Shown here: positions 20,477 to 53,200 of the stretch, piece by piece
Numbering within the stretch: position 1 is the stretch's first letter
Layout: each line of letters opens with the position of its first letter
DNA from: Pollenia angustigena
Taxonomy: Eukaryota > Arthropoda > Insecta > Diptera > Polleniidae
Assembly (NCBI GenBank): GCA_930367215.1
Contig: OV884057.1
Coordinates: 103,317,284-103,381,283 of the forward strand
DNA: 64,000 nt
Reading direction: 5' to 3'
Notes under the pieces: model-generated
Databases searched by the model: none
The model's input: the letters and a program-made list of their open reading frames with translations, nothing else
Told to the model about the DNA's origin: nothing
Made by a program: the position numbers and the translations under genes

Positions 20477-20484
20477 TATAATCA

Positions 20485-27108: not shown

Positions 27109-27155
27109 ATATTTTGATGTCTCATCGGGACGATTTTGACATCAAAGGGGGAGAC

Positions 27156-32692: not shown

Positions 32693-33039
32693 TACATTCA
32701 ACAATTCGAATGGTCCCTACAAGAAATGAATGAGCGAGTAGTCACATTTTTCATTTTGGTGTTATGAAAATGATAGAAAGAAATGTTCGAATGTGACCGA
32801 AAACTTTATTTCGGTCATTTCTTTCTATAATTTTCTTAACACCAAAATTATTGTAAAGCAAGCCACGACCTAAAAATTTTAAATGCAGAAAACATAGTTA
32901 TATTTTAAGTATTTTTCAACAACAAATATAGCACAGATTAAATAAGAATTTTATTAATTTATGTAAAAGTTATATTAAAACATACACATGTATTTACAAT
33001 TATTATAAAATTATGCTTCTATTAACGAAATATAATACA
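32693..33039. other. Non-coding, with small foldback 32753-32851
   Basis: ATTTTGGTGTTATGAAAATG followed by a GAAAGAAATG block is mirrored by CATTTCTTTCTATAATTTTC and TTAACACCAAAAT. The remainder up to the Polinton is AT-rich and featureless. Confidence 0.6.
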
Positions 33040-33087
33040 AGTAGTATAAATATGGGGATTTTGTATATGATTTTTCCTCCCTACGTG

Positions 33088-33271
33088 ATTCCCATAAGGA
33101 GGAATTTTTAAATTTCAATTTCCTCCCTACGTGTTTTCCCATAAGGAGGAATTTTTTCTTCCCATAGGGAGGAATTTTTAAATTGAAATGTTACTTTAAA
33201 CTTAGATATTCTAGATTAATTTTTCAACTTTTTTTTTGCTCCAATGGATTTTTCCATAAGGAGGAATTTTA
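33088..33271. repeat. Iterated CCATA(A/G)GGAGGAATTTT motif near left terminus
   Basis: Copies lie at 33091-33107, 33138-33155, 33161-33177 and 33254-33270, two of them preceded by TTCCTCCCTACGTG, so each forms a small CCTCC/GGAGG dyad. The same array is mirrored at about 52970-53170. Sites for the integrase, terminal protein or an origin factor are plausible. No function is proven. Confidence 0.75.
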
Positions 33272-33486
33272 AATATAAACAAAATAAAAAACTTTTGAGT
33301 AATTTTAAATAAAAAAAGAGAATTATATAAAGATGATTATATTTTCTTCAATGAAGAGAAATTTAAAAATGCGTACAAATAAATTGTTTGAGTATTTTTA
33401 AATAAGATAGAGTAATGTGTAAAATATTTAGAATATGTACCACATGTAAGTATAGAGATTAACTCAATTTGAAAGTTTGCCATTAA

Positions 33487-33495
33487 TATAAAAAG
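33487..33495 (+). promoter_or_regulatory. TATA box for the terminal-repeat gene
   Basis: TATAAAAAG lies about 65 bp upstream of the ATG at 33557. It is mirrored in the right repeat. Confidence 0.5.
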
Positions 33496-33556
33496 GCTTA
33501 GGGAGTGTATTCCACATCATTATTCTAATTGTCACTTTAAAGGAAACTTAATAAAA

Positions 33557-33927
33557 ATGGTAAGCATTTCGTACATAATAAAGGTATATTTAATTATTTA
33601 TTATGTTTTTTTGTTTGTTTTCAGATGTATAAAAAAATTGTGAATATTGCCCAAGGTATTAAGCCTGAGTATATTAGAATAGATGATGTACCTTTAAACC
33701 AATCTTTGAAAATTGTGAATTTTGAATGGAAAGAAACACAATATGGCATAAAAGTCATTGCCAATTTAGACGACAATAAATGGTTTTATCTCCCCAATAG
33801 AATGATAAAATTTTTAAATAAGGAGGATTCATACTTAACTCAAATGAATGATAAAGTGTGGACAATTATTTACAAGGGGCGTCAATTACCAAATGGACCT
33901 GCAATATTCGATTTAAATTATACCTAA
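33557..33927 (+). CDS. Small Polinton protein in left terminal repeat (OB-fold-like?)
   Basis: The exon ATG (33557-33559) is followed by a GTAAGC...TTTTCAG intron (33560-33624) and then a 100-codon ORF starting MYKKIVNIAQGIKPEYIRID. The pattern of alternating hydrophobic strands (LKIVNFEWKETQYGIKVIAN; WFYLPNRMIKFL; WTIIYKGRQLPNG) suggests a small beta-barrel, perhaps a single-strand DNA-binding OB fold, which would fit replication. That is inference from strand pattern only. The copy in the other terminal repeat differs by one residue (Ser to Pro in KED-S/P-YL), so the pair is homogenised or young. Confidence 0.7.
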
Positions 33928-34019
33928 AATCCTTACAATAAAGATAAATATAATAAAAGAAAAACAAGATTTTTTTTTAATTTTTATTACTTTTATTTAA
34001 AATAATTTTACATATAAAA

Positions 34020-34320
34020 ATTTAAAATTTAATTTCCAAGAAATAAGAATCATCGTCCTCCAAAAATTTTTTTATGAAGTCGGGAATCTCCTCCTTCGCG
34101 TTGTCGGGGATCTCTTCCTTTATGTTCATCTCTGCGGGATTTGGATTTTGAAATTTGGAGTTCTTAGCCGCGTTGTCGGGGATCTCTTCCTTTATGTTCA
34201 TCTCTGCGGGATTTGGATTTTGAAATTTGGATTTCTTAGCACTAAAATTATGCTTTTGTTATATTTGTTTGCAAACGTTAAATGTTTGCAAAACTCGCAA
34301 CTGATTTTAACGCTTTCCAT
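34020..34320 (-). pseudogene. Zinc-finger-like small protein, left-repeat copy, broken
   Basis: On the reverse strand ATG is at 34320, starting MESVKISCEFCKHLTF with both zinc-binding cysteines. A ~19-bp deletion then removes the histidine half and shifts the frame. A ~75-bp segment encoding the acidic KEEIPDN part is tandemly duplicated. The right-repeat copy (52004-52249) is open. Confidence 0.7.
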
Positions 34321-37300
34321 TTTTTAATTAAATAAAAATATTAAAAAATCTTTTGAAAATACCTCGTAAAACATATATTTATTTATTTACTTATAAACTT
34401 TTTTTATTTTGGTATACATATTTAAAGTTAATCAAAGCATATTTTGAAAACTGATCTATGATTATTGAACTTTTAAGAACATTCTGGTAAAAAGTAAATA
34501 TACAATTGTTATTGTGGAAATTAAAAGTCAATAAACTTTTCGTTATGCTAAAAAGTGCAATCGTATGCATTTTTAAAGTTTATACATTAACCTTGAATGT
34601 TTGCTTCATATTAAATTATGAGTTAATAAACTTTTCATAAGTGAAAAAAATGCAATCGTAGCAGTTTTTAAGTTTAAGAATTTACCTTGAAAGTTGGCTT
34701 CAAATTAAGCCATGAATTAATGAACTTTTCAAACGTATTTTATTTCATTATTTATAATAATTATAACATATTTTATTAAACAGTTATCAAATATTTTTGA
34801 AACTATAAACATGGCCGGTATTATTAAATGTAGTGAGTGCAAAAAAGTTTTTGAAAAAGAAATGGACTTAAAATTTCATGAAAAAACGCATGCGTCTTCA
34901 TCTTCAAAAAATCAAATAGGAAAAGTGAAACAAGTGGCAAGTGCCTTTAAAACTAGAATAATAATTCTTTCATATGAAAATATGAATAAAAAAAATATTA
35001 TTCCGGAAATATTTTTAAAAGGAGCTGCCGCGGTAATGAAGTCGGAAGTGTAGAAGTTTTTAAGACTCCATGTCATATTGAAATTCAATATGGAACTTTC
35101 AGGGTTTTATATAAAGCCCAACATTAAAGAGGGAGAAAATATATCCACAGAATTAAAAACCTTCCAAACCAAAATGGAAGAAATATATTGTATTGAAGAT
35201 TTTGATGTCATTTTTAATAACAAAATTGAAAAAGTGTTACAAAAAATGGAGGAGTTTCAAGAAAGGGATAGTGGTTGGAATCTTATTGAAATATTAAAAG
35301 TGGATGTCAATTTAAACAAGTACCAACCAATAAAAGGCTCAAGTTTCATACAACTTCCCAGAAAATTAATGTTAAAAAAAGCCTGCCTCAATATTAAAAA
35401 CAGAGATGAGTTTTGTTTTAAATGGGCTGTTATATCTGCAATAGCTAACTTAAGACAAAATAACGCCAATCTACCATTTATGTATAATGTTAAGATTGAG
35501 GAACAAATAATTGTCATAAATGGTTATACCTTAAATTTTAAGGGATTAAGCTTCCCTCTAAAAATAAAGGACATAGCCATTTTTGAAGAAAACAACCCTC
35601 TGTTAAGTATTAATGTTTTTGGATATGATGACGAAAAAGATTTAGTTGTTGGACCCTATTACAAAACTAAAGGGAAAAAATCTAAACACATTTCCCGTAT
35701 GTTCCTACAGGAGAAAAATGGAGTTAATTCCCACTTTATGTGGATAAAAAATATTTCAAGGTAAGTTTATAATTGACAACCGTTATAATTTTGTGTTATT
35801 AAAATGATATCTTTATTTTTCTTTTTGCAGATTAATCAGATTGCAAACAACGAAGCATAAAGGGAAAATTTTTGTATGCGATGACTGTCTGCAGCATTTT
35901 TACCAAAAGGATAAATTAAAAAATCACCAACAACACTGTAACAGAAAAATCGCCTATGCTCCAAAGGAAAGTGAGTCAACATTAAAATTTAAGAATTTCA
36001 ATAACTCCATTGAAGTTCCATTTGTGATATATGCTGATTCGGAATGCATTTTTGAAAACATTCAAACGTGCATTCCGAAAGGGGATACTTCATCAACAAC
36101 TTTGATTGATAAGCATATCCCCTATGCATTTTCATATTTCATTAAGTGTAATTTCAATGATAATTTAAATAGATTAAGAATATTTAAAGGGCTTGATTCC
36201 GCAAAGCTCTTTATAGAAAATTTAGTACTAGATATAAAATATTTAAATGATAATTTTCTCACTAAAATTGTCCCAATGACACCCTTAACCGAACAGGAAA
36301 ATTTAAATTTTGAAAACAATAATGTTTGTCATATTTGCTCTCAAGCTATTACAAATGACATAAAAGTAAAAGGTTATTGTCATTTAAGTGGAAAGTATAG
36401 AGGACCAGCTCATAACTATTGCAATATTAATTATAAAATACCAAAATTTTTCCCTGTAATTTTTCATAATTTTTCGGCCTATGACTGTCATTTATTTATT
36501 AAGCAGCTAAACAATATTGATGATGGTCCTATAAATATTATTCCACTTAATAAGGAGCTATATATATCACTGTCTAAGTCTATTAAAGGCGATAGCACTG
36601 ATAATATTGAAATACGATTTTTAGACTCCTATAGATTTATGCCCTCAAGCTTAGACAATCTCGTTAAGAATTTAACTAAACATGAATTGAAAATAGTGAA
36701 ATCATTTTGTGTAGATGATGAAACTAAGTTTAATTTACTTGTAAGAAAAGGAGTTTTTCCATATAGTTATTTGAATTCTGTTGCGAAACTTACAGAAAAA
36801 CATTTGCCAAGCAAAGAAGATTTCTTCAATAAGTTAAATAATACACATTGTTCTGAAGAAGACTTCATTCATGCTAAAATGGTTTGGAGCACATTTCAAT
36901 GTGAAACTTTGGAAGACTATTTAATGTTATACCTTAAAACTGATGTTTTATTGTTAGCAGATGTATTTGAGAATTTTAGGATTGTTTGTAAAGATATTTA
37001 TAATTTAGACCCATGTCATTATTTCACAGCTCCAGGATTATCATGGGATGCTATGCTTAAATTAACAAATATTAAATTAGATTTGCTTACTGATCTAGAA
37101 ATGATCTCCTTTCTTCAAAAGGGTATTAGAGGAGGAATAGTTCAATGCTCTCAAAGGCATTCTATTGCTAACAATAAATATTTGCCAGATTATGATCAAA
37201 GCCTACCTTCTAAATACTTAATGTATTTAGACGCAAATAATTTATATGGTTGGGCAATGTCTGAAGCTCTACCAGAAGGTAATTTTGAGTGGGTAAGAAA

Positions 37301-37494
37301 CATTGATAATTTTTCTTTAGACTCAATATCAAATGATTCCGATATTGGATATATTTTAGAAGTTGATTTAGTATATCCAACAGAAATCCATGATACTCAC
37401 AATAATTTACCTTTTTGTAGTGAAAACAAAACTCCACCAGAATCTAAAGAAAAAAAGTTACTTGTTGATTTAAATAACAAATCTTAGTATGTAA

Positions 37495-38463
37495 TAAAGA
37501 GATGCACAAGCACAAGAAATATTGCTTACAAGCAATTTCATTGAATTTAGATAGTGTGTGTTTATTACTCTCTCATTACAAAACACATACTTCCAAAAAC
37601 AATTGTTTTGTTTTACGATCAAAATATAGAAGAATAGAACAAAACTGCACTAGAACAATGCTGAACTAAAATAAAGCTGAATTAGAACAAAGATGAAGTA
37701 GAACATTAAAACAGAAATAGAACATTCCAAGCATGTTTGAATGTTTTGATTGTAAACATATACCAAAGAGAATTGCAAAGTGAGAAACATTTTCGTTTTG
37801 TAATGAATATGAAAAAGCTTAAAAAAGTTTATATGTAATATTAATTTTTATTTACAAAAATTTATTGTTTATTATTTACATACATATAAAGGTACTTAGG
37901 TCTAATATTTAAATAAAATTAAGAAGAATTCATTATTTTCATAGATATAAAAAATAAAATCTAATGGTGTGTTTCACAATTTTTTGGGAATATTGATAGC
38001 AACAAAATATTAATAATTATTTAACTAGAATTAGAAATATTGGTTAAATAAACGTTTAAAGTTTTATATAAAAATAAAACAAGACCTCAAGCTTGATAAT
38101 TTAGTTATACATAATATAATAATAAAGGTCGACTAAAATAAAATATATGTACATTTAGGAAATAATTCAAAAATATCAATTTTTTTATTTTTTTTTAATG
38201 TTCTAGTGCATTCGATGCTTTTACTATAATTTACCGTTTCTGTATTTCATTGTCTGTTTTTGTGTTGATATTCTGTTTGTTTTGATAATACAAGCACTAA
38301 CAAAGCAGAAGAGAAAAACTTTTCAAGTTATGCTTGTTTTGTTTTGGTGGAAGTAATGTGTTGTTATGTTTGTTTTGCTATGTATGTTTACAGTGAAATA
38401 ATATAATTGATAGTTGTGTGAAGTAGAACATAGAACATTAAGAATATTTTGCGCAGCCCTTTA
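37495..38463. mobile_element. hAT-like non-autonomous element in polymerase B
   Basis: The ends TAAAGAGATGC and GCAGCCCTTTA are flanked by the 8-bp duplication GTATGTAA (37487-37494, 38464-38471), as for hAT. The 969-bp interior is non-coding, with several GAACAAxxxTGAAxTAGAACA-type words at 37625-37705. Confidence 0.88.
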
Positions 38464-39034
38464 GTATGTAATTTATTATAAAAACTTACAGTAATGTTTA
38501 AAACATGGTTTGAAGCTAACTAAAATTCATAGAATATTAAAATTTAAGCAGTCTTATTGGTTAAAAAAATATATTTCACTAAATAATTTTCATAGAACTA
38601 ACGCAAAAAACACTTTTGAGAAAAATTTCTTCAAATTATTAAACAATGCAGTATATGGAAAACGTTGATAAACGCAAAAATATTAAAATAGTTAATAATT
38701 GGGAAAATGTTGGTAAGAGACTTGGAGCTCGTTCTCTTATCGCTAAACCATAATTTCATTCTCTAAGTATATTTGAAGAAAACATGGTAGCAGTTGAACT
38801 AAATAAATCTTTTTCATTTTACAATAAACCTATTTACTTACACTGAAAGAAAAATGCTTCATATATTTAATGAATCATTTTCATCAAAAAGTTTTCCTTG
38901 GGTAAATGAAAATTTTCATTGTCTAAATGGAATTTCATAGGTTTGATGAAGTATTTTCGTTAAAATCGCTTCATTAGATTTCGTAATTACGTTAAAAATT
39001 TTCATTGGATATATGAAAACTTAAGTGCAGAACT

Positions 39035-41443
39035 ATGAAGGAATATTGCAACGAGACAAAAAGACTTACACAACAACAACAACGACTAAAATTCATACTT
39101 TCGTGCAGAAGTTATGGAATAATACCAAATCACACTAAGAACACAACAAATCAGGTAAACCGGCTGTTTCAATGTGAAACAATAAGAAAATCACTAGAGA
39201 AAATTGAATATAATTTTCACAAAAAGATTTTACACCTAGAAGTTTCACAAACAAACACTAATATTAAACTTATTAAACGCAAAATTTTTCAATTAAGAGC
39301 TGGTATTGAACACATGATCACGGAAGATGATTATAAAAACTTTTTTATTAAACAAACAGATAGAACAAAACACATAACGAAAAATGTGAAAGAGGTACAA
39401 ATAAAAAAACTGAATACACTGAAGGAAAAACACTTCAAACTTCATGGTTTAATTTTTAATGACCATTGGTTTGAAAATAGAACTAGGACAATTTTTCCAG
39501 TTGAATGTAAATGGATGTTATCCCTAGGGAAAAAATTCTCTTTACCAGTTGATAAAGGAAATTTCTCCTCAGTTCACATCATTGCAGACGTGGAACAATG
39601 TATTCAGGGAATGGAAAACGTAGACAAAGAAAAAGAGGTAGCTAGAACAAAATTGGCGAACATGGTAACCAACTTTAAACGTAAATTTGTAAATACGCCA
39701 AAGGAAAAATTTATTATTACAGTTTTTGAAAAAACGAGGAAATTTATTAACAAACATAAGGACATCATAATTATACAGCCAGATAAGGGCAATAAAACAG
39801 TAATCATGTACAGGAACGAATATAAAGAAAAAATGAACAAACTTTTAGATGACAAAAATACATATCGATCTGTTAGGTCAGATCCCACGACTAAACTGCA
39901 GCGGGAGAATAACAATATTATTGCAGAACTACATAGGGGAAACTACATTGACTCTTGGCAAAAACGCAAACTAATATGTTCTGCGGCAACGGCACCTAGG
40001 ATATATGGATTGCCAAAAATCCACAAGCCTGGAACACCTCTTCGACCTATCGTGTCCTCAATACAAGTCCCTTGCTATAGTCTTTCAAAATACGTGGGTC
40101 AAATACTAAAGCATATCATTTCGGATAAATATAATGTAAAGAATTCTACGCAGGTGAAAACACAATTAGAGACTATGCAGCTCAACGAAAATGAAGTCTT
40201 AGTATCTTTTGATGTTATTTCGCTTTTTACAAATATCCCAGTCTATACGGCAATTAAAAATATAATGAAAAAATGGGACAAAATTAAAGAATTTACAAAA
40301 ATCCCTAGTTCTAAATTTCTGCAAATCCTCCAATTCTGCTTAACGGACAATAACTACTTTGTGTATGAAGAAAAGGTCTATAACCAGATCTTCGGCATGC
40401 CAATGGGCAATCCTCTTTCGCCTACTATAGCAGATATAGTACTTGACACCTTACTTGACGATGCAATCACGGAACTTAGAAATAAAAATATTCACATAAA
40501 ATACATAATAAAGTATGTAGACGATATATTAGCCATAATCAACATCAAAGACAAAGATATTATTCTGAACACCTTCAATAGTCACCACCCCTAAATTAAA
40601 TTTACAGTAGAACTTGAGAAAAATTGTGAAATTGCGTACCTCGATATTAGACTACGTAGACAGCAAGATGTGATTAAATTTGACTGGTACGCAAAGGAAA
40701 CTTCATCTGGCAGAATAATGAATTACAACGCGACACAACCCAAAAACCAGATAATCAATACAGCAAAAAATTTTATATCAAGAGTATTAAATATAAGCGA
40801 CCCGCAATATCATAACAAAAATATCGACAAAATCTCAGAAATTTTATGTAGCAATAGTTTCCCTAAAAAATTAATAAATACACTTATCAACGATACACTA
40901 AAACATGAACAAAGCAAAAACATTAATAATGATGACAACCCTGAAAAAGGCAAACAATTTTACAGTGTAAAATACATACCTGGCTTGACGGATAATAGAC
41001 ACATAAGGACAACAATAAAATCAGAACAAATAAACTTTGCATACAAACCAAATACAACTTTAAGTGCAATATTTTCAAGAGTAAAGGCGCCAATAGAAAA
41101 ACCACAACAAAGTAATGTTGTTTACGAAGTAAAGTGTAACGGAAGGGACGATCAGAACTGTGACTTAATTTATATAGGAACAACAAAGCGCTCCCTTGAA
41201 AAGAGAATGGGAGAACATCAAAATGATATATTAAAGAGAAGAGAAACAAGTGCATTATCCCAACACATGATTTCTACATCTCACTCCTTTAAAACAGAAC
41301 AAGTGAGAGTGTTGGATTTTGAACGAGGGGAGAGAAAGAGATATACGATAGAAAGCTTAAGAATACAACAACACATAATGAAAACAATGAACCACAATGA
41401 AGATGTTGACAATATTAGTGCCTGTTATAGAACCGCAATATAA
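39035..41443 (+). pseudogene. Penelope RT + GIY-YIG endonuclease, one nonsense codon
   Basis: Open in a single frame except TAA at 40592-40594. The N-terminal half carries IQPDKGNKTVIM, IYGLPKIHKPGTPLRPIVSS, VSFDVISLFTNIPV, FGMPMGNPLSPTIADIV and the catalytic KYVDDILA, all typical of Penelope RTs, which are related to telomerase. The C-terminal part has a GIY-YIG nuclease: VVYEVKCN, DLIYIGTTKRSLEKRMGEH and a glutamate in KRYTIESLRIQQ. The nuclease nicks the target for integration. Only one codon separates this from an intact gene, so the insertion is fairly recent. Confidence 0.9.
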
Positions 41444-41635
41444 TTATTTCTGTGATAATAACTTTAAGTTGTGCTTTACTGTTTTTGTTAAATATGTTTG
41501 TGCAGTTTAATTTTATTATAAACCTGTCGATGTTTTTAATGTAAAATAATATATATTTTTGTAAGTTGTGTTTGCTTGTTGTGAAAAAATATTTTTGTAT
41601 TAATGTTATCCTTTTATTATTTTTATTTAAATAGA

Positions 41636-41680
41636 CGACCCTTGAAAAAGTCACCAAAAAAGTGACGAAACGTCGGGTGA
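41636..41680 (+). ncRNA. Hammerhead-like hairpin at Penelope 3' end
   Basis: CTTGAAAAA is followed by the stem GTCAC (41650-41654), loop CAAAAAA, GTGAC (41662-41666), then GAAA and CGTCGGG. The order of a degenerate CUGANGA-like box, stem II and GAAA box follows a hammerhead ribozyme core, a motif known from Penelope-like elements. The second copy (50721-50757) has the compensatory stem GTCGA/TCGAC. The 5' core box is degenerate, so activity is doubtful. Confidence 0.5.
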
Positions 41681-42198
41681 AATGAAATAAAATTGTTTTT
41701 TTATTTACATCAACATCATTAGGTCTTATTAGCTTATAAAAGAAAAATAAACTGAAAATTAATAATCAATTGGCCAAAGAAATAAATACGAATTAAGTTT
41801 GTCCAAGTTAAACAAAAAATTTTAATTGGGAACTTAAAAAAACAATATACAAACATAACTATATTCATAAATTAATACAAAATTATAGTTTCCTTAAAAA
41901 AATGTTTAATTTTTAATTAAAAAATGTAAGATTTAATAATTTCATGCATCGAATGTTACATGTATGCCATTAAATTTATGAAATCAAAAAATTTTTTTAT
42001 AAAAGCAACATATTTCAATAATTGCCTTCATAAATTTAAATTTTCATTATGACAATAAAAATGTCATTATAGTAATGAAACAAAAACTTTCAATCCACTT
42101 TCAATCAACGTTGTTATTGTTATTATGGACAATTTAATCTCATATTTACGGTCTTAATTGAGAAAAAAAACATAGTTTTTTTATACAAAAACTACACT

Positions 42199-42360
42199 GC
42201 CCCGGTAGACTAGCTGGTAGTGAGCTAGTCTATCAGCACCGAGGTTACATGTTCGAATCCCACCAGAGACAGAAAAAAAATAAAAATAAAATAAAGTAAA
42301 ATAAAATAAGAAAAAAGAAAAAAAAATAAATAAAAAAAAAAATAAAAAAAATAAAAAAAA
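42199..42360 (+). repeat. tRNA-derived SINE
   Basis: The tRNA-like head GCCCCGGTAGACTAGCTGGT contains an A box (TAGCTGGTAGTG), and a good B box (GTTCGAATCCC, 42251-42261) follows. An AAAATA-rich tail then runs to about 42360. It lacks a closed tRNA cloverleaf acceptor stem, so it is a SINE rather than a tRNA gene. A diverged copy is at 17153-17250. Confidence 0.75.
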
Positions 42361-43341
42361 TTTTACTTTATTGAAAGTATTCATCCAATGAATAATATTC
42401 ATGGATCTAATGTAATGTTTCATTAAGTCCTTTTAATGAAACAGGTTTCATTGATCCAACGAAGCGCTGCATAGGTTCCTTTATAATGCAATTTTTCATG
42501 GGATTAATGTCAAAATTCGTTAGTATTGCGAAGAAAATTCTTTCAGTGTAGGTTTTACAATCTTAGAACTTTCGAAATGGAAAATGTATGATTTTCATTA
42601 CGATTACATATTACCAAAATATAAAACTAAAGTAGAATTAAATTATATGGACACAGATTCATTTATTTATACATTTGAAACGGATGACTTCTATAAAGAT
42701 ATAATTAACGACATTGATTTAAAGTTTGATACATCAGAGTATGAAACAAATAATAAATTTGGAAAACCAAAAAAAAAAAAAATAAAAAAGTCTTAGGGAT
42801 GATGAAAGACGAAAATAATGGAATTATTATGAAAGAATTTGTAGGCTTGAGAGCAAAAATGTATGCTTTTAAAACAGCAGATATGCAGGAAATTAAAAAG
42901 GCTAAGGGTGTCAAGAGTAGCATATGTAACAGTTTAAGTCTATCTGATTATAAAAATTGTTTATTTAACAAACAAATTTATTATGGAAATATGTATATTT
43001 TTAAGTCAAAACTACATGTGTTATATACCTCCTTAATTAATAAAATATCATTAAGTTATTTAGATAATAAGAGATATATTTGTGATAATAATGTTAATAC
43101 TCTTGCTTGGGGTCACTACAAGCAACAATTTTTAAAATTTGATGAAGATGATGACTACTTAATGAAAGTAGACGTAGATTTAATTAATTATAAAGATCAG
43201 TTTCAAAAAGATAATGAAGATGATGAATATTTAATGGAAATTGAATACTAAAGAAACATTTTTTCATGTAAATATTATTTTAAATTAAAAATAAAACATT
43301 TTTATATACATATATTATAAACAAAAAAGAGTTTAATTTTT

Positions 43342-43944
43342 TTAAATATTTTGCCATAATACATTTTCATTATCGTAATCTAATTTCTTTCGATTTCTTG
43401 TAACACGAGGAGAATATTGATAAGGTAAAGTTGATTGTTTCATATTTGAATAGTTATCAGTTTTGGATAATATTCTAATTTTTGGAGTTCCTTTTTCCGA
43501 AAAGCTTTTAAGACGCTTAGCTACGGAAGATGCAGAAGAAGGATTAAATTTTTGTATTCTTGTATCCATATCGTTCTGGTCATCATTATTTGTGTAAATA
43601 TCTTCAGGCAAATTCAAATCTGTTTGCAGTGCTATACTACTCGACTGAGGTGTAATTGTTTGCGTTTCAATATGCTTTTTATAGACCTTTTTCGTTTGAG
43701 TTTCATTATCGCGCAAATTATGCATTGTTGATATTTTATTCTGATTAGATGATCGTTGGGATCCAATTAAATATTTAGCAAGTTCTTGTTTAATATAATA
43801 CCATTTGTTTATATCCTTCAGTGTATGTGAACCATATATTGGCAAGAGTTTCCGATGTAAAAAATCTGAGTCAGAATGTTTAACTTTAAATTTTTCGTAA
43901 GTTGATGGATGTAGAACTATAAGTTTTGATAATTTATTTGACAT
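43342..43944 (-). CDS. Polinton conserved protein of unknown function (200 aa)
   Basis: The open reverse ORF starts MSNKLSKLIVLHPSTYEKF. The first 60 residues look folded (KLLPIYGSHTLKDINKWYYIKQELAKYL). The rest is S/T/Q/N-rich and basic (SSASSVAKRLKSF; RVTRNRKKLDYDNE). A hydrophobic N-terminal motif of this form (K-L/M-x-L-V-x-P) followed by a disordered tail recurs beside the small and ATPase genes in Polintons. It is probably virion-associated. Its start overlaps the stop of the upstream small ORF by 11 nt, indicating a compact virus-like gene cluster. Confidence 0.72.
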   Translation of the reverse strand: MSNKLSKLIVLHPSTYEKFKVKHSDSDFLHRKLLPIYGSHTLKDINKWYYIKQELAKYLIGSQRSSNQNKISTMHNLRDNETQTKKVYKKHIETQTITPQSSSIALQTDLNLPEDIYTNNDDQNDMDTRIQKFNPSSASSVAKRLKSFSEKGTPKIRILSKTDNYSNMKQSTLPYQYSPRVTRNRKKLDYDNENVLWQNI

Positions 43945-44139
43945 TTTCTAAAATTTTTCCAATGACTCCACTTAATATTGATGTAATAATAATGGGTAAA
44001 AATCCTCCCTTTTGAATAAGATGTTTCCTCTTTTGACGCATAGAGGTTTGTGATGAGCAAACTTTCCTCAAAGTATTTTTATATGGTTTTAGTTTTTCAA
44101 ACACATTTTTGTTTATTTTATGATTTCTGTTTATGATAT
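43934..44139 (-). CDS. Small Polinton protein with GG-hydrophobic tail, start unclear
   Basis: The reverse frame encodes about 65 residues: a KNVFEKLKPYKNTLRKVCSS segment, a basic MRQKRKHLIQKGGFLP junction and a hydrophobic tail (IIITSILSGVIGKILE). Basic segment, GG and hydrophobic helix together match the small protein that commonly sits by the ATPase in Polinton-type genomes. No ATG is visible in frame, so translation may need splicing or the start has been lost. It ends 11 nt inside the next gene. Confidence 0.6.
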
Positions 44140-44177
44140 TTAAAATAATTTAATTTAAAGTTTTGATAACAACATTG

Positions 44178-44909
44178 TCAACATTTTTCAAAATTGCATT
44201 TCGTAGTTTGTGATCCGCTTTTTTGAGAACATAGAGAATATGTTTGTTCTCCTTCAGTAACTTTAGATTTGAAGTCATTGTTTATATTTGCATATATATA
44301 GTAATCTGTATTAAAAATATTTGATCTAAATCTTAAAGCGTTTGGTATTTCTTGAGTAAGATCAACTATTAAATAACCATGGGCCTGTTCTGTACAATGA
44401 TTATATACATCTACTAAAGATTTTGAGTTTTCTGGATATACTTGACGAGCTAGATGTTGGAATTGTGTCTTATCTCTTGGATTTTTAAACATAACTATAT
44501 ATTTGGAGTTTAATGATATATCTCGCGAATAAGACCCTTTATGAAAAATATTTTGTGTAACTAAAATTACGCTTAAGTTTCTATGATGAGATCCTTTTGT
44601 AAATAGTTCACAAACTTTCTTATTTGATGATTCATGCATTAAATCATCCAATATTATTAAAGTAGATTCTTCGTCATTCGTATTAAAAGACTCTGGAATT
44701 CCTTTAACAAACTCTACATTTTCTATATTTGGAAGTGCATTTATTTCAGAATAACACCATATGATTCGGTATATATCTTTAGATATTATATTTTGATTTT
44801 TTATAATATTTTTAATAAAAGTAGATTTCCCACAGCCTGAGGGACCACAAACCATCATTGTAAATGGATATATAAACTGATGAAACATGTTTGCACTCTT
44901 AAAAGCCAT
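44178..44909 (-). CDS. Polinton packaging ATPase (FtsK/HerA type)
   Basis: An open 243-residue ORF starting MAFKSANMFHQFIYPFTMMV. It has Walker A GPSGCGKST (residues 22-30), Walker B LIILDDLMHE (near 84-93) and a sensor-like VILVTQN. These are typical of the adenovirus IVa2-related or FtsK/HerA ATPases that pump DNA into the capsid. The C-terminal tail is polar and short. It lies 39 bp from, and divergent to, the integrase gene, so the gap at 44910-44947 must hold both promoters or starts. Confidence 0.93.
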   Translation of the reverse strand: MAFKSANMFHQFIYPFTMMVCGPSGCGKSTFIKNIIKNQNIISKDIYRIIWCYSEINALPNIENVEFVKGIPESFNTNDEESTLIILDDLMHESSNKKVCELFTKGSHHRNLSVILVTQNIFHKGSYSRDISLNSKYIVMFKNPRDKTQFQHLARQVYPENSKSLVDVYNHCTEQAHGYLIVDLTQEIPNALRFRSNIFNTDYYIYANINNDFKSKVTEGEQTYSLCSQKSGSQTTKCNFEKC

Positions 44910-44947
44910 TTGTTAATGAATTAAAAAGGAAGAATATTTTATTTAAT

Positions 44948-45871
44948 ATGAGTAGAAAAAATCTTATTGACGAAATTCATAGTCAAGCTAGAAAAAACTT
45001 TAAGCGTCGTAGGTTTATTCAAAAGGGAATTTTAGATACTTGGCAAATAGACTTGGTGGAGATGTTACCATATGCAAAATTTAATAAAGGTTTCAAGTAT
45101 ATGCTTACTGTAATTGATGTTTTTTCAAAGTATGCCTACGCTGTGCCATTAAAAACTAAAACAGGATTTGAGGTTTCAAAATCATTTAAAAGTATTGTAA
45201 ATTTAAACAGTAACAAAGCTCCTAAAAACCTGCATTCAGACCAAGGAAAAGAATTTTATAACACATATTTCAAAACTCTAATGAAAGAGCTAAATATTAA
45301 CCATTACCATACCTATTCAAATTTAAAAGCGTCAATAGTTGAACGATTTAATAGAACTTTAAAAAATAAAATGTGGAAGCAATTTAGTATGCAAGGAAGC
45401 TATAACTGGATAGATGTATTAGACAAACTATTGACAGAATATAATTCATCTTATCATCGAAGTATAAAGATGAAACCTAATTCAGTCAACAAGCGAAATG
45501 AAAAAAAAATTTTAAGAACTGTGTATAATAATTTAAAAGTTTTTAAAAACGGAAAATTCAACATAAACGATTTTGTTCGCATAAGCAAATATAAAAATGT
45601 TTTTGAAAAGGGGTATACACCAAATTGGTCTACAGAAGTTTTTAAAGTTAATAAAATAAATGCAACAAACCCTGTCACATACCAGCTAAAAGATTTTAAT
45701 GGAAATTTAATTAAAGGTGGATTTTATCAAGAGGAGTTATTAAAAACTAAAGTTCCTAACATCTTTTTAGTTGAAAAAGTCTTAAAACGTAGAGGCGAAA
45801 AACTATTTGTAAAATGGTTGGGTTTCGGAAAAGAATATAATTCATGGATTAATCAAACAGATTTTAGTTGA
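44948..45871 (+). CDS. Polinton retroviral-type integrase with chromodomain
   Basis: Open, 307 residues. The rve core carries the DDE triad: DTWQIDLVEM, NLHSDQGKEF and SIVERFNRTLK. After an SH3-like segment (FNINDFVRISKYK) a C-terminal chromodomain is evident: VEKVLKRRGEKLFVKWLGF then YNSWI. Integrase joins the element ends to chromatin and makes the 6-bp duplication seen here. The chromodomain may guide it to histone marks. The zinc-binding N-terminal domain is minimal. No damage is seen. Confidence 0.95.
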   Translation: MSRKNLIDEIHSQARKNFKRRRFIQKGILDTWQIDLVEMLPYAKFNKGFKYMLTVIDVFSKYAYAVPLKTKTGFEVSKSFKSIVNLNSNKAPKNLHSDQGKEFYNTYFKTLMKELNINHYHTYSNLKASIVERFNRTLKNKMWKQFSMQGSYNWIDVLDKLLTEYNSSYHRSIKMKPNSVNKRNEKKILRTVYNNLKVFKNGKFNINDFVRISKYKNVFEKGYTPNWSTEVFKVNKINATNPVTYQLKDFNGNLIKGGFYQEELLKTKVPNIFLVEKVLKRRGEKLFVKWLGFGKEYNSWINQTDFS

Positions 45872-45954
45872 TAAACTAAATTTTTCATATATGTATAACA
45901 CACAACTTATAACATTTAACATTTCTAATAAATATGGCGTTAAGCACAGAGGAA

Positions 45955-46905
45955 AATAGTACTAGCTGACCCGGTCTACGTTGCTGGCTCTAAGTAAACA
46001 TTAGTTTTGTATTACCACACGATTTAAATTGAGCATTTAACGAAATTTACGGTCTTTAAAATAAAAATCCATGGAATACCTATCATAAATTTTTTTTAAA
46101 AAATAACTTACATATGGTGTGGATATGGGCTCAATCAAAAAAGAATAAGTTGGACCATGGCGATAATTTTAAAGAAAAAATCGTCCAAATCGGTCAAGCC
46201 GTTCTCAAATCATGCTCTTAATAGAAAAAGTGGGCGTAAAAGTAGGCGTGGTAATTTTTTCTTTCGATGAAAACGTAAAATAAATTAATACGAACAGTTA
46301 AAAGAAAAATTAGTCAAATCGATGGAGCAGTTTTTTGATTTTAGGTAAATCGAAAAAAGTGGGCGTAAAAGTGGGCGGGGCAAAATTTTCTTTCCGTAAA
46401 AACCTAAGTTAAACCATGGCGATCATTTTGAAGAAAAAATCGTCCAAATCGGTCAAGTCGTTCTCCAGTTATGCGCTTAATAGAAAAAGTGGGCGTAAAA
46501 GTAGGCGTGGTAAATTTTTCTATCGATGAAAACTTAAAATGGATTAATACGAACATTTGAAAGATAAATTAGTCAAATCAAAATCGTCCAAATCGGTCAA
46601 GCCGTTCTCAATTTATGCGCTTAATAGAAAAAGTGGGCGTAAAAGTAGGCGTGGTAAATTTTTCTATCGATGAAAACTTAAAATGGATTAATACGAAGAT
46701 TTGAAAGAAAAATTAGTCAACTCGATGGAGCCGTTTTCTGATTTTAGGTAAATCGAAAAAAGTGGGCGGGGCAAAAGTATCCTATGTCCGTCTCCTGGCT
46801 CTAAGCTACCTCCCTACCAATTTTCAGCCAAATCTGTTCTGCTGTTCTTGAGTTATAAGTGGTGTAACTAACACGACTTTCTTTTATATATATAGAATAA
46901 GATGA
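45955..46905. repeat. Inserted GGGCG-rich repeat between integrase and minor capsid gene
   Basis: It starts near ACTAGCTGACCCGGTCTACG and ends TTTATATATATAGAATAAG. Inside, a unit containing AAAAAGTGGGCGTAAAAGTA is repeated about four times with GGCGTGGTAAATTTTTCT and CGTCCAAATCGGTCAAGC. There is no ORF. It splits the N-terminal coding part of the minor capsid gene. A related terminus occurs at 20893. Confidence 0.7.
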
Positions 46906-46969
46906 TTCAGTAAATTTATATAAAAACACCTCTAGTACTTTCACAAATTTATTAAAGCAATCACTTAGC

Positions 46970-47731
46970 ATGAGTGACCAGTGGGAAGTCGGATTATCAG
47001 ATATATCCTTCTCGATAGTGAATAAACAACTAAATATGAATCAAAATATACTTAAACGTAAAAAACGCAACATTTCAAATTTAAATAATCAATCTGTAAA
47101 AACATTGAAAATTGACTCAAATAATGAATACGATGAAATAAAAACAAAATTGAAACTAAAAAATATAAATAAAACTTCAAGATTTTTAAATACATTAAAC
47201 ATTGATAAGCCCCAATCTAATATACCTATGAGAGAAAAAAACACTCGCAACGTAAATACAAAAAGCTCAGAACCATCAAATAATGAAAAAGATCCAATTT
47301 TATCATCAAGAGAAAAAGATACTCGTAGCGTAAATATAAAAAGTCCAGAATCATCAAATAATGAAAAAGAACCCATTTTATCATCAACAAATTATATTTT
47401 GGAAAAATCTTTGAACAAATTCTCTGACAACATAAATCAGTTTATTAATAAATTTGAATCGTCTGATATAAGTGAAAACATATTTATTTATACTGATATA
47501 ATAAAACCTCGGAATGTTGGTAGTAAAAAAATTAAATGTTTAAAAATATTTTCAGTAGCAACATTAAAGAACTATATTAATTTCAATAGAATTGAATATT
47601 TTTTTGCTCTTGAAGCCTATAATATAAATGATATTTCCATAATGATTCGAAATGATGAAGGAGAAGAGATAAGCTTTAATAAATTAGTTCCCGTCTATCG
47701 TACTCTACACTTTAAAAAAAAGTGTATATAA
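46970..47731 (+). CDS. Polinton penton-like minor capsid protein (N-terminus displaced)
   Basis: From ATG 46970 the ORF begins MSDQWEVGLSDISFSIV. The frame is open further upstream to about 46911, where in relatives the N-terminal strand lies, so the true start was probably left of the repeat insertion (a short ORF start MALSTEENSTS is at 45934). The C-terminal ~90 residues (FIYTDIIKPRNVGSKKIKCL ... ISIMIRNDEGEEISF ... RTLHFKK) match the single jelly-roll penton-type protein of Polintons. The middle is replaced by K/N/S-rich sequence with two copies of an REKxTRxVNxKSxExSNNEK-type unit (residues ~85-140). Confidence 0.78.
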   Translation: MSDQWEVGLSDISFSIVNKQLNMNQNILKRKKRNISNLNNQSVKTLKIDSNNEYDEIKTKLKLKNINKTSRFLNTLNIDKPQSNIPMREKNTRNVNTKSSEPSNNEKDPILSSREKDTRSVNIKSPESSNNEKEPILSSTNYILEKSLNKFSDNINQFINKFESSDISENIFIYTDIIKPRNVGSKKIKCLKIFSVATLKNYINFNRIEYFFALEAYNINDISIMIRNDEGEEISFNKLVPVYRTLHFKKKCI

Positions 47732-47775
47732 AATAGGTGTGTAACCAAACAAAATTAATCATTTTTATTACAACC

Positions 47776-48194
47776 ATGGATACGATTTATACAAGTTATT
47801 ATAATAATCAGTCTGCAGAAAATATACAAAATATTGGTGAAATTTACAATACGGTCGTGGTATTGGATCCATATTTTCGGCTGTATTTTCACATTTAAAA
47901 CCCTTATTTAAAACGGGGATGAATATATTAAAGAATAAATCATTAGATATTGGAAAGGAAATTTTAGAAGAAATTGGAACAAAGCCAATAAAATAAATCT
48001 TACTAAACAAAGGAAAAAAGGTCATACAAAATATAAAAGAAGCTACTATTGATAAAATGAAAACAATGCAGAAAGGTAAAGGTCGACGTATAAAACTTAA
48101 ACGTTTAAAGCAAAAGCAACAGATTAAATCAAAACGTTGTAGAGGAAAGAACTTTAAGGATATTTTTGGAAATTGGAAATGTCAGGATTTATAG
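47776..48194 (+). pseudogene. pVI-like small capsid-module protein, broken
   Basis: ATG 47776 opens MDTIYTSYYNNQSAENIQNI. A frameshift near 47850 leads to YGRGIGSIFSAVFSHLKPLF, the glycine-rich amphipathic stretch typical of adenovirus pVI-like proteins in Polintons. A TAA at 47994-47996 is followed in the same frame by a very basic tail (GKGRRIKLKRLKQKQQ) to 48194, overlapping the major capsid start. In relatives such proteins link capsid and DNA or disrupt membranes. It is inactive here as it stands. Confidence 0.68.
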
Positions 48195-49447
48195 AATGTA
48201 TGAAGAGTGAGTTGGATTTATTTGAATCTCCTCCAATTCAAACCAGCGTTGTTAAAATTGAAGAAATATGCTACAATCCAATTGCCTCACTAGATAATTC
48301 GAGCACAATTGAATTTGGATCACTAGGCAATGGTGAAACATATCGAGATCTGAACAGTATTTATCTTCGACTAGTCATTGAATTAAAAGGAAACGGAGGA
48401 GTAGTTAATAACTTACTGCACTCCTTGTTCAGAAATTGTATTGTACACCTTAACAATAAAAATGTATCACAACCTGACAATAACTATCACTATAGGGCTT
48501 ATATCGAAAAATTGTTACATTATGGAAATGATGCTAGATCAACACATCTTGAATCATGTGGCTGGGCTATTGATACAAATAAAATAAATTCATTAGTTGA
48601 TAAAGAAAATCCTGGTTTAAACAAGAGAAAAAAACTATTTAAAGATGGGAAGAGAGTAGAGCTTTTTGGAAAACTTCATGTTGATGTATTTAATCAACAA
48701 AAATACTTGCTTAATAATGTTGATCTAAAGGTAACATTAAATTTGGAAAAACCGGAATTTTACATTTTAGAAGGTGGCGATAAAAATGAATCCTATATTA
48801 AAATACATGAAGCTAATTTATTAAAAAACCACCTTACTATTAATCATAATATTCTAATGGCTCATCATAATGTATTACAATCAAGAAATGCTATTTATCC
48901 TTATAAAAGAGTGGAAATAAAAACGTTTACAATACACCCTGGAAATCACTCATTAACTTTAGATAACGTTATACTAGGACGGTTACCAAATTTTTTAATT
49001 TTTGGAATGGTGTCTAATAAAGCATATACTGGAGAGAAAAAAGAAAATCCATTTAACTTTCAACATTTTAATTTACAAAGATTTAATTTGGTTGTTAATG
49101 GAGTACAATTTCCTGCACAACCAATTGAACTTAACTACAATAACGGAGGAATAATAAGTACTCGTGGTTATCAAACACTATTTAAAGGAACTGGAATTCA
49201 TCATTTCGATAAAGGTCATCAAATAACTAAAGAACTTTTTGATAACGGATATTTTTTACTTGCTTTCGACTTAACACCAGATCATAATAATAATTCCAAT
49301 TGCGGTAACTTAATTAACCAGGGAACTATTCGTATTGAAGGGCGTTTTGGAAAACCAATTGTTGAAGCAATAACGTGCTTAGTATACTGTGAATTTGATA
49401 GTGTTATAGAAATTGATAGAACGCGTAATATTATTCAAACACTATGA
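48179..49447 (+). CDS. Polinton major capsid protein (double jelly-roll)
   Basis: Taking ATG 48179 (MSGFIECMKSELDLF) as start gives about 422 residues with no stop. Signature blocks are FESPPIQTSV, YRDLNSIYLRLVIEL, NSLFRNxxVHLN-like LLHSLFRNCIVHLNN, YHYRAYIEKLLHYG, ELFGKLHVDVFNQQKYLLNN and FGKPIVEAITCLVYCEFDSV. These are the double jelly-roll capsid protein conserved across Polintons. Its TGA overlaps the protease ATG (ATGA, 49444-49447). A TTG six bases upstream is open but the ATG is the likelier start. Confidence 0.95.
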   Translation: MSGFIECMKSELDLFESPPIQTSVVKIEEICYNPIASLDNSSTIEFGSLGNGETYRDLNSIYLRLVIELKGNGGVVNNLLHSLFRNCIVHLNNKNVSQPDNNYHYRAYIEKLLHYGNDARSTHLESCGWAIDTNKINSLVDKENPGLNKRKKLFKDGKRVELFGKLHVDVFNQQKYLLNNVDLKVTLNLEKPEFYILEGGDKNESYIKIHEANLLKNHLTINHNILMAHHNVLQSRNAIYPYKRVEIKTFTIHPGNHSLTLDNVILGRLPNFLIFGMVSNKAYTGEKKENPFNFQHFNLQRFNLVVNGVQFPAQPIELNYNNGGIISTRGYQTLFKGTGIHHFDKGHQITKELFDNGYFLLAFDLTPDHNNNSNCGNLINQGTIRIEGRFGKPIVEAITCLVYCEFDSVIEIDRTRNIIQTL

Positions 49448-49636
49448 ATTCAATTAATATTAAAAATACTTTGAACTCCAATAATATAACCAAATATAAA
49501 TTTAAAGGTGTATTTGCATGTAATAAATTGCCAACACATCCAGTCTTAAAACCGTCATTTTACGTTGCTAACACTGATCCATCACATAAGCCTGGAGAGC
49601 ATTGGGTTGCTTTTTATTTTCCTAAAAACAAACCTT

Positions 49637-50838
49637 TCTGTCAATTTTTAACAAACAACACCCTAAAATACAATTTACTACTGAGATTGAAAAAAACGGA
49701 GAAATCGCGTACTTAGACTCAAAAATTATACGCAAAAATAATAAGATTCTGTTTGATTGGTACACTAAAGAAACATCTTCAGGAAGGTTAATGAATTACC
49801 ACGCTACACAACCCAAAAATCAAATTATAAACACAGCAAAAAATTTTATTTCTAGGGTATACAACATAAGTGATACACAATTTCATAATAAAAACAAACA
49901 CATTATAACAAACATTTTAAAAAACAATAGCTTCCCCACCAAACTCACATCTACATTGATAGACAATACGATTAAACAATTGGATAAGGACAAAAATAAC
50001 CACATCAAATCTGCAAACATAGAAAAAGAAGAGAACAAATTTTACAGTGTAAAATACATACCTGGGTTAACCGATAATAATAATATACGGTCGTCAATAA
50101 AAACAAAAAACATCTGTTTTGCATACAAACCCAATTTGACATTAAGTACAATTTTTTCTAGAGTTAAGGCGCCAATTAATAAACAAAAACAAAGTAACAT
50201 TGTATACGAATTACAATGTGAAGGAAATGACAAACAGCCATGCGAGCTAATTTATATAGGAACAACAAAACGTACACTGGAGACAAGAATGGGAGAACAC
50301 AAGATGGACATAATGCGGAGAAAAGAGACAACAGCACTAGCACAACACATCCTACATACTGGTCACACAATTAGGTTCGATGATGTAAAAATTCTAGATA
50401 AAGAAAATAAAGAAAGAAAGAGGTACACAATTGAAAGCCTAAGAATCCAACAACAAATTAATAGAACAATGAATTTGAAGGAAGACACGAACAAAATAAA
50501 TGCGAGCTATATTGTTGCCATTACTTAAGCTGTGATATATTTAAAGTTTAAAGTAATATGTATTTTTTAAATATTAAAATTAATTTTTATATTTGTATGA
50601 TCCTGAGTACATCTAAAACTTTTTAATGTGATTAAATTTTCATATTGTAAGTCTTTAATGTTTATGTGGTACATTATTGTATTTATTTTATTGTTTTTAT
50701 AATTTTTAAATAGACAATCCCTTGAAAAAGTCGACAAACAATCGACGAAACGTCGGGAACAAAATATTGTAATTAAAAATTGAATTTTATTTACATTGAA
50801 GAAATTTAGGCCCTATTAGCTTGACAAAAATAATATTC
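49637..50838 (+). mobile_element. 5'-truncated Penelope-like fragment
   Basis: It begins within the RT C-terminus, contains the GIY-YIG region (49791-50528, with ELIYIGTTKRTLETRMGEH) and ends at a TATTAGCTT-type 3' end near 50822. It is homologous to but clearly diverged from 39035-41443. AAACCT flanks both sides. Confidence 0.88.
50720..50757 (+). ncRNA. Hammerhead-like hairpin, second Penelope copy
   Basis: CTTGAAAAA, stem GTCGA (50730-50734), loop CAAACAA, TCGAC (50742-50746), GAAA, CGTCGGG. The stem differs from the copy at 41636 by compensating changes, which supports a selected RNA structure. Confidence 0.5.
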
Positions 50839-51179
50839 ATAAACCTGCTGAGTACTTTTGTTCTGCTGGCCAATCTCCAAATAAATACTTTAGATTATTT
50901 TTAGATAAAAATTGTAAAACTTTTCTGTATAATAGTCTTCGAATTCAGAGTGAAACTTCAATTTTATGTGGAGTTTATTGTTGTGTATTTATTTATTTAA
51001 GATCTAAAAATATGAGTTTCAAACTAATTTTAAAATTATTTAATTATTTTAATTTATATTACAATGATATATTAGTTGTAAGTTTATTTAAGTATATTTT
51101 TAAGAATTCTTAAGAATATAATAAAAGATAAAAAATAAGAAAAAAAAAACACATTTTTGTTTTTTATATTTGCTCTTTA

Positions 51180-51467
51180 TTAATTTTTAAATATAACCTT
51201 ATAACTATTTATTAAATTTACATTTATTTTTCTGAGGTAGTATACCGTACACCTGCACGGATATGGACCCTCTTTACAATTGTTGTTATGCCATGGGCAG
51301 CATTCAAAATGAGGGACGTTTAGTCCTTCATCGTAGTCATCTACACCGTACTCCTCATTTTCCTCTAACATTGTAACAAAATGGTATATGCACTCCCTGT
51401 GCTCAAACATCAGAACATTTTCAAAGTCTTGTAAAAAATTATGTACATATTCTTTTAAGTAAGACAT
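51180..51467 (-). CDS. Small Cys/His-rich hypothetical protein
   Basis: A 95-residue reverse ORF starting MSYLKEYVHNFLQDFENVLM. The middle is acidic (EENEEYGVDDYDEG), followed by a Cys/His cluster HFECCPWHNNNCKEGPYPCRC that could bind zinc. It lies between the protease and the right terminal repeat. I do not recognise the family. It may be an accessory Polinton gene. Confidence 0.5.
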   Translation of the reverse strand: MSYLKEYVHNFLQDFENVLMFEHRECIYHFVTMLEENEEYGVDDYDEGLNVPHFECCPWHNNNCKEGPYPCRCTVYYLRKINVNLINSYKVIFKN

Positions 51468-52003
51468 TTTTGTTCTGATTTGTCTGGATTCTCTAATTTG
51501 AATGTTTCTCGTTTCAAAATTTTAAGATATAAGTGTGATATATCAGAAGAATTTAAACATCAGTATATATGTATATATCGTATGTAGCCAAATCTATTTG
51601 TAATTAACTCATAATTTAATGTTAAGCAAACATTCAAGGTTAATTATTTAACTTAAAAAATGCATGCTATTGCATTTTTTCACTTATGAAAAGTTTATTA
51701 ACTCATAATTTAATATGAAGCAAACATTCAAGGTTAATGTATAAACTTTAAAAATGCATACGATTGCACTTCTTAGCATAACGAAAAGTTTATTGACTTT
51801 TAATTTCCACAATAACAATTGTATATTTACTTTTTACCAGAATGTTCTTAAAAGTTCAATAATCATAGATCAGTTTTCAAAATATGCTTTGATTAACTTT
51901 AAATATGTATACCAAAATAAAAAAAGTTTATAAGTAAATAAATAAATATATGTTTTACGAGGTATTTTCAAAAGATTTTTTAATATTTTTATTTAATTAA
52001 AAA

Positions 52004-52249
52004 ATGGAAAGCGTTAAAATCAGTTCCGAGTTTTGCAAACATTTAACGTTTTCAAACAAATATAACAAAAAAAGGCACATTATGCGAGTGCATAATTTTA
52101 GTGCTAAGAAATCCAAATTTCAAAATCCAAATCCCGCAGAGATGAACATAAAGGAAGAGATCCCCGACAACGCGAAGGAGGAGATTCCCGACTTCATAAA
52201 AAATTTTTTGGAGGACGATGATTCTTATTTCTTGGAAATTAAATTTTAA
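52004..52249 (+). CDS. Small zinc-finger-like protein, right-repeat copy
   Basis: An open 81-residue ORF starting MESVKISSEFCKHLTF. The C2H2-like pattern is FC...RHIMRVH, but the first cysteine of the finger is Ser here. The left-repeat copy keeps Cys but lost the histidines. An acidic tail (KEEIPDNAKEEIPDFIKNFL, EDDD) follows. The role is unknown, perhaps a DNA-binding regulator of the element. Confidence 0.6.
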   Translation: MESVKISSEFCKHLTFSNKYNKKRHIMRVHNFSAKKSKFQNPNPAEMNIKEEIPDNAKEEIPDFIKNFLEDDDSYFLEIKF

Positions 52250-52343
52250 ATTTTTATATGTAAAATTATTTTAAATAAAAGTAATAAAAATTAAAAAAAA
52301 ATCTTGTTTTTCTTTTATTATATTTATCTTTATTGTAAGGATT

Positions 52344-52714
52344 TTAGGTATAATTTAAATCGAATATTGCAGGTCCATTTGGTAATTGACGCCCCTTGTA
52401 AATAATTGTCCACACTTTATCATTCATTTGAGTTAAGTATGGATCCTCCTTGTTTAAAAATTTTATCATTCTATTGGGGAGATAAAACCATTTATTGTCG
52501 TCTAAATTGGCAATGACTTTTATGCCATATTGTGTTTCTTTCCATTCAAAATTCACAATTTTCAAAGATTGGTTTAAAGGTACATCATCTATTCTAATAT
52601 ACTCAGGCTTAATACCTTGGGCAATATTCACAATTTTTTTATACATCTGAAAACAAACAAAAAAACATAATAAATAATTAAATATACCTTTATTATGTAC
52701 GAAATGCTTACCAT
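52344..52714 (-). CDS. Small Polinton protein in right terminal repeat
   Basis: Mirror copy of 33557-33927: ATG at 52712-52714, intron 52647-52711, 100-codon ORF to 52344. One residue differs (Pro for Ser). Having one copy per terminal repeat doubles the dose and keeps the copies alike by conversion. Confidence 0.7.
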
Positions 52715-53200
52715 TTTTATTAAGTTTCCTTTAAAGTGACAATTAGAATAATGATGTGGAATACACTACCTAATCCTTTTTATATTAATGGCAAACTTTC
52801 AAATTGAGTTAATCTCTATACTTACATGTGGTACATATTCTAAATATTTTACACATTACTCTATCTTATTTAAAAATACTCACTTCATTGAAGAAAATAT
52901 AATCATCTTTATATAATTCTCTTTTTTTATTTAAAATTACTAAAAAATTTTTTATTTTGTTTATATTTAAAATTCCTCCTTATGGAAAAATCCATTGGAG
53001 CAAAAAAAAAAGTTGAAAAATTAATCTAGAATATCTAAGTTTAAAGTAACATTTCAATTTAAAAATTCCTCCCTATGGGAAGAAAAAATTCCTCCTTATG
53101 GGAAAACACGTAGGGAGGAAATTGAAATTTAAAAATTCCTCCTTATGGGAATCACGTAGGGAGGAAAAATCATATACAAAATCCCCATATTTATACTACT

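What the first reader, a model, noticed from the sequence alone, without database searches (positions are those of the whole stretch)
33040..53200. Complete-ended 20-kb Maverick/Polinton with 6-bp target duplication
Both termini (AGTAGTATAAATATGGGG) and the AATACA duplication are readable, and the whole virus-like gene suite is present with open integrase, ATPase and major capsid genes. This is the most virus-like entity in the window and a good family reference.
Basis: partly seen in the sequence, partly recalled or inferred. Interest (0 to 1): 0.9.

Follow-up and report, generated by a model that had tools for sequence, protein, structure and literature searches.

The report
Broken-up fly Maverick with complete ends
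This is one insertion of a known kind of virus-like mobile element (a Maverick, or Polinton) in what looks like a fly genome: its ends are complete, but younger DNA insertions have broken several of its genes, and each end carries an extra small gene that may help copy its DNA.

Summary
The ends are as described. The element runs 33040-53200, opens AGTAGT, closes ACTACT and has AATACA on both sides. Its inverted repeats are about 1.6 kb (10 substitutions in 1,506 aligned columns). Integrase, packaging ATPase and a double-jelly-roll major capsid gene are open. It meets six tested Maverick/Polinton criteria; two (minor capsid, protease) stay inconclusive. The 4 organism-named relatives among the 120 listed capsid hits are flies.

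'Whole gene suite' is not borne out. PolB is cut by a hAT-like insert and by a 3.7-kb TA-flanked element that holds a Penelope-like element, and has stops and frame changes. The likely protease gene is cut by a second Penelope-like copy, and a repeat insert lies at the start of the putative minor capsid gene. About 6.8 of 20.2 kb is later insertion, leaving about 13.4 kb.

One less ordinary point: each inverted repeat carries a 100-aa gene with two relatives found. Its moderate-confidence model is OB-like, with PRD1 ssDNA-binding protein as the best Foldseek match (weak). I suggest, as a lead only, a replication SSB. Overall: a degraded new member of a known kind, not a good intact reference.

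The parts
33034..33039 (.). left copy of 6-bp target-site duplication AATACA
33040..34649 (+). left terminal inverted repeat, begins AGTAGT; its first 240 bp hold four CATARGGAGGAA motifs and two TTCCTCCCTACGTG motifs that can pair into hairpins
33625..33924 (+). TIR gene A, left copy: 100-aa protein, OB-like predicted fold; a 65-nt GT-AG intron-like stretch (33560-33624) lies just before it
34022..34258 (-). TIR gene B, left copy: open only in part (72-bp tandem duplication; 19 bases fewer than the right arm in the finger region)
34724..37486 (+). PolB, N-terminal pieces: zinc-finger-like N-terminus (by eye), in-frame stop 35051-35053, intron-like GT-AG gap 35761-35830 (70 nt), DNA_pol_B_2 match in 36300-37484
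37487..38471 (.). hAT-like nonautonomous insert (37495-38463) between 8-bp duplications GTATGTAA, with TAAAG-type ends; interrupts PolB
   Evidence: the hAT label is from recalled end and duplication rules
38495..38840 (+). PolB middle piece (DNA_pol_B_2 E 5e-4 on 38495-38665, below the curated cut-off), with a frame change near 38660 and a further stop near 38751
38841..42548 (.). 3,708-bp element with CACTGAAAGAA inverted ends and flanking TA; interrupts PolB
39017..41736 (+). Penelope-like element copy 1, nested in the TA-flanked element: reverse transcriptase (RVT_1 E 2e-10) and GIY-YIG-like region (by motif), one in-frame stop at 40592-40594
42549..43251 (+). PolB C-terminal pieces, frame change near 42780
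   Evidence: assigned by recalled motifs and position only, no Pfam polymerase match
43342..43947 (-). open 201-aa frame, unknown accessory protein
   Evidence: no family match
43934..44149 (-). open 71-aa frame with hydrophobic C-terminus, unknown
   Evidence: not searched against any library
44178..44912 (-). packaging ATPase (Pox_A32 E 6e-8, Walker A GPSGCGKS, Walker B LIILDD), open
44903..45871 (+). integrase: rve core E 1e-13, D50/D113/E147 of the stop-to-stop frame, weak C-terminal chromodomain match (E 0.009, below cut-off), open
45960..46893 (.). tandem GTGGGCG-rich repeat insert, boundaries approximate, at the start of the putative minor capsid gene
   Evidence: exact ends inferred
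46901..47731 (+). putative minor capsid (penton) frame, 5' end apparently cut off, with a 78-bp in-frame tandem duplication
   Evidence: identity by position and recalled motif only; no match, no relevant solved relative
47750..48194 (+). small basic/amphipathic capsid-module protein (pVI- or PW-like by position, recalled), with a frame change and stop 47994-47996
48158..49447 (+). major capsid protein, open: 429 residues from stop to stop, first ATG at 48179; double jelly-roll model
49429..51113 (+). likely adenain-type protease, two pieces (49429-about 49640 and 50832-51113) split by Penelope-like copy 2
   Evidence: weak: best match of the second piece is adenovirus protease, E 0.19
49643..50823 (+). 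Penelope-like element copy 2, 5'-truncated, 62% aa identical (180/290) to copy 1; left boundary approximate
51675..53200 (-). right terminal inverted repeat, ends ACTACT
52001..52249 (+). TIR gene B, right copy: open 82-aa small protein with a C2H2-like spacing (by eye; no Pfam zinc-finger match)
52347..52646 (-). TIR gene A, right copy, 99% identical to the left one
53201..53206 (.). right copy of target-site duplication AATACA

Best explanation
A single Maverick/Polinton integrated here, probably in a fly genome. Shown: the ends, the 6-bp duplication and near-identical inverted repeats of one integration, with open integrase, ATPase and capsid genes. Inferred from known Polinton biology: a linear, protein-primed PolB-copied DNA was joined at its AGT ends by the rve integrase with a 6-bp staggered cut, and the capsid and ATPase genes once served a virion. 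After integration the copy was hit by further insertions at four sites (hAT-like, TA-flanked element with a Penelope-like element inside it, GTGGGCG repeat, second Penelope-like copy) plus small changes, so it is now non-autonomous.
Against: No empty site, long reads or second copy could be examined. The whole 559-aa PolB frame lists no DNA_pol_B_2 match; only pieces cut from it do. The C-terminal PolB pieces match no polymerase family. Minor capsid and protease assignments are weak by sequence. Sequence comparison with solved structures found nothing for the capsid protein, and its fold matches large DNA viruses' capsids as well as virophages', so the fold alone does not single out Polintons. 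The integrase has 33 residues between its second Asp and the Glu, where 35 is usual in retroviruses (recalled). Fly host rests on 4 named relatives among 120 listed hits, the nearest of them 55% identical.
Confidence: 0.93

Rival explanations
1. The PolB and protease insertions predate this integration: the defective element was replicated and packaged in trans by an intact relative, so the break pattern is inherited.
For: The inverted repeats differ by only 10 of 1,506 columns, pointing to a recent integration, yet the copy already holds insertions at four sites, one with a further nested element, while integrase, ATPase and capsid frames are open.
Against: Four indels in about 3.1 kb of summed repeat arms is a high enough rate to explain the small breaks by ordinary decay after integration (my estimate, few events). 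Exchange between the arms could also keep them alike. Whether other copies share the inserts is unknown, because the assembly could not be searched.
Confidence: 0.12
2. Assembly artefact: the two ends come from different Polinton copies joined by the assembler.
For: Near-identical repeats of 1.6 kb can mislead an assembler; no reads were available.
Against: Matching 6-bp flanks (chance 0.00074), the expected gene order between the ends, and arm-specific differences in both repeats.
Confidence: 0.05
3. TIR gene A is not an SSB but another small OB-like or beta-barrel protein, for example a regulator or host-interaction factor.
Against: The two best Foldseek rows in the PDB are PRD1 SSB P12 (E 0.0054 and 0.015), and of the 8 rows at E<=0.001 in the viral library 2 are named ssDNA-binding proteins, the other 6 unnamed or uncharacterized.
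Confidence: 0.6

Closest known systems
Maverick/Polinton elements
   Same: End motif (AGT)2//(ACT)2, 6-bp duplication, rve integrase, protein-primed-type PolB, packaging ATPase and double-jelly-roll capsid; modules as described for vertebrate Mavericks
   Different: Inverted repeats of about 1.6 kb, longer than the 46-1,447 bp reported for intact vertebrate Mavericks; genes inside the repeats; GT-AG intron-like gaps in PolB and before TIR gene A, where intact vertebrate elements were described as intronless; several genes broken
Drosophila-associated adintoviruses 1-3
   Same: Lengths of 13.3-14.6 kb; PolB, integrase, capsid, protease and FtsK homologues stated for adintovirus 1, and an almost identical complement for 2 (passages)
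   Different: Here integrated, with defined ends, and broken; direct sequence comparison not made
PRD1 ssDNA-binding protein P12
   Same: Best Foldseek rows for the TIR gene A model; in PRD1 the gene also lies close to the right genome end on the inward-facing strand
   Different: No detectable sequence similarity, low TM-score 0.35, and here the gene is inside both inverted repeats

Membership tests
Maverick/Polinton | terminal inverted repeats with AG(T)-type ends | tested here: met
   motif compared with PMC8097293 passages
Maverick/Polinton | 6-bp target-site duplication | tested here: met
   AATACA both sides
Maverick/Polinton | rve-type integrase | tested here: met
   (E 1.1e-13); D, D and E present with 33 residues between the last two
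Maverick/Polinton | protein-primed-type family B DNA polymerase | tested here: met
   DNA_pol_B_2 E 8.3e-17 and 1.2e-14 on cut pieces of the 559-aa frame and 5e-4 on the next piece; the uncut frame lists no such match; the gene is broken; protein priming itself not testable
Maverick/Polinton | packaging ATPase (FtsK/A32 type) | tested here: met
   Pox_A32 E 6.2e-8 above its cut-off, and Walker motifs
Maverick/Polinton | double-jelly-roll major capsid protein | tested here: met
Maverick/Polinton | minor capsid (penton) protein | tested here: inconclusive
   frame in the expected place, no match; one irrelevant row at E 1.1
Maverick/Polinton | adenain-like cysteine protease | tested here: inconclusive
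   best match of the second piece is adenovirus protease but E 0.19; first piece no relevant match; no Pfam match
Maverick/Polinton, 'intact' copy | all core genes open | tested here: not met
   PolB and the likely protease split; putative minor capsid and small capsid-module frames disturbed
OB-fold single-stranded DNA-binding protein (TIR gene A) | OB fold | tested here: inconclusive
OB-fold single-stranded DNA-binding protein (TIR gene A) | cooperative ssDNA binding | not testable with these tools
   needs purified protein
hAT-like insert | 8-bp duplication of the hAT type and short inverted ends | tested here: met
   GTATGTAA, only two places in the window; TAAAG ends read directly; no transposase seen, so family by recalled rules only
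Penelope-like element | reverse transcriptase with GIY-YIG endonuclease | tested here: inconclusive
   RVT_1 E 2e-10 in copy 1; YIG motif seen but no Pfam GIY-YIG match

The most novel reading that the evidence does not exclude
A lineage of fly Mavericks carries its own replication SSB, an OB-fold protein of about 100 aa, as a near-identical gene in each inverted repeat beside a small zinc-finger-like gene. Replication from either end would thus expose and express an SSB gene early, and exchange between the repeats would keep the copies alike. This would supply a replication factor that I did not find described for Polintons in my searches (listings, with passages read of one paper).
Probability: 0.25. 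Interest if true: 0.5.

Novelty: new member of a known kind. Interest (0 to 1): 0.32.

Why it matters
It gives exact ends, a target duplication and a gene map for a Polinton, probably of a fly, whose capsid protein has 914 relatives in public data. It also warns that 'complete-ended' does not mean intact. If TIR gene A is an SSB, it adds a testable replication part to a group whose replication machinery is known to me mainly through PolB.

Full report
What is there. The window holds one Maverick/Polinton between 33040 and 53200. It opens with AGTAGTATAAATATGGGG and closes with the reverse complement. AATACA lies immediately outside each end; by sampling, two random places of this window share a 6-mer with frequency 0.00074. 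The inverted repeats reach to 34649 and from 51675 (1,610 and 1,526 bp). With strong gap penalties they align over 1,506 columns with 10 substitutions and four gaps of 1, 19, 32 and 72 nt; megablast on the same arms counts 22 mismatches and 86 gap positions. The 72-nt gap is a tandem duplication in the left arm. The repeat end carries four copies of CATARGGAGGAA, in part inside hairpin-like units; the motif was not found in the window outside the element.

What is broken. PolB has an in-frame stop at 35051-35053. A 985-bp segment, 37487-38471, is bounded by GTATGTAA on both sides, with TAAAG-type ends. There is a frame change near 38660 and a stop near 38751. A 3,708-bp element at 38841-42548 has CACTGAAAGAA inverted ends flanked by TA. 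A further frame change lies near 42780. The 3.7-kb element itself contains a Penelope-like element (39017 to about 41736; reverse transcriptase E 2e-10). A second, 5'-truncated Penelope-like copy (about 49643-50823; 62% aa identity, 180 of 290) splits the likely protease gene. A GTGGGCG-rich tandem repeat (about 45960-46893) sits at the start of the putative minor capsid frame, which also has a 78-bp in-frame duplication. The small capsid-module frame has a frame change and a stop. The four inserts sum to 6,796 of 20,161 bp, leaving 13,365 bp (approximate, as two inserts have estimated ends). This is close to the 13.3-14.6 kb of adintoviruses found with Drosophila (passages of PMC8363768).

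Introns. A 70-nt stretch, GTAAGT...TTTTTGCAG, separates two PolB pieces at 35761-35830, and a 65-nt stretch, GTAAGC...TTTTCAG, lies just before TIR gene A. Intact vertebrate Mavericks were described as intronless (passages of PMC8097293). These are predictions without transcripts.

Mechanism. Shown: one integration with 6-bp duplication, and insertions inside it. Inferred from established Polinton knowledge: protein-primed copying of a linear DNA by PolB, integration by the rve integrase, packaging by the ATPase into a jelly-roll capsid, and that the nested insertions came after this integration. This copy should not make a full PolB as it stands, so any present movement would need help in trans (inference).

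Literature seen. Passages of PMC8097293, PMC8363768, PMC11071308, PMC8276246 and PMC4028283; other papers only as search listings. No paper surfaced whose listing describes an SSB gene in Polinton inverted repeats; the library lacks most subscription papers, and the adintovirus paper PMC8502044 was not held.

Limits. The host assembly could not be searched, so copy number, shared insertions and the empty site are untested.

Against the first version I corrected the named solved integrase relative, the adintovirus gene-set wording, the position of one PolB stop and the capsid codon count, and added the result that the uncut PolB frame lists no polymerase match.

Noticed in passing
20075-27467: LTR retroelement with 300-nt direct repeats 92% alike at its ends, aspartyl protease and H2C2/rve integrase matches and a reverse-transcriptase-like frame (by eye); it seems interrupted between about 24900 and 25860.
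   Followed up: partly
549-3143: Long open LINE-type frame with endonuclease and reverse transcriptase (RVT_1 E 6e-37).
   Followed up: partly
9485-9910 and 11536-11934: Two separate DDE_Tnp_4 pieces, Harbinger-type by recall.
   Followed up: no
43216-43296 and 52214-52289: The end of PolB and its downstream DNA is 75% like the end of TIR gene B (E 2e-7; above 200 shuffles): a possible partial duplication, not seen at protein level.
   Followed up: partly
41640-41736 and 50715-50820: Both Penelope-like copies end ...TATTAGCTT after a GACGAAACGTCGGG-type motif, reminiscent of the hammerhead ribozymes of these elements (recalled); Rfam gathering thresholds found none.
   Followed up: no
29151-32700: Cluster of direct and inverted repeats beside the Polinton's left flank, with GTGGGCG-type motifs; BLAST of the insert at 45955-46895 found no match to it.
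   Followed up: partly
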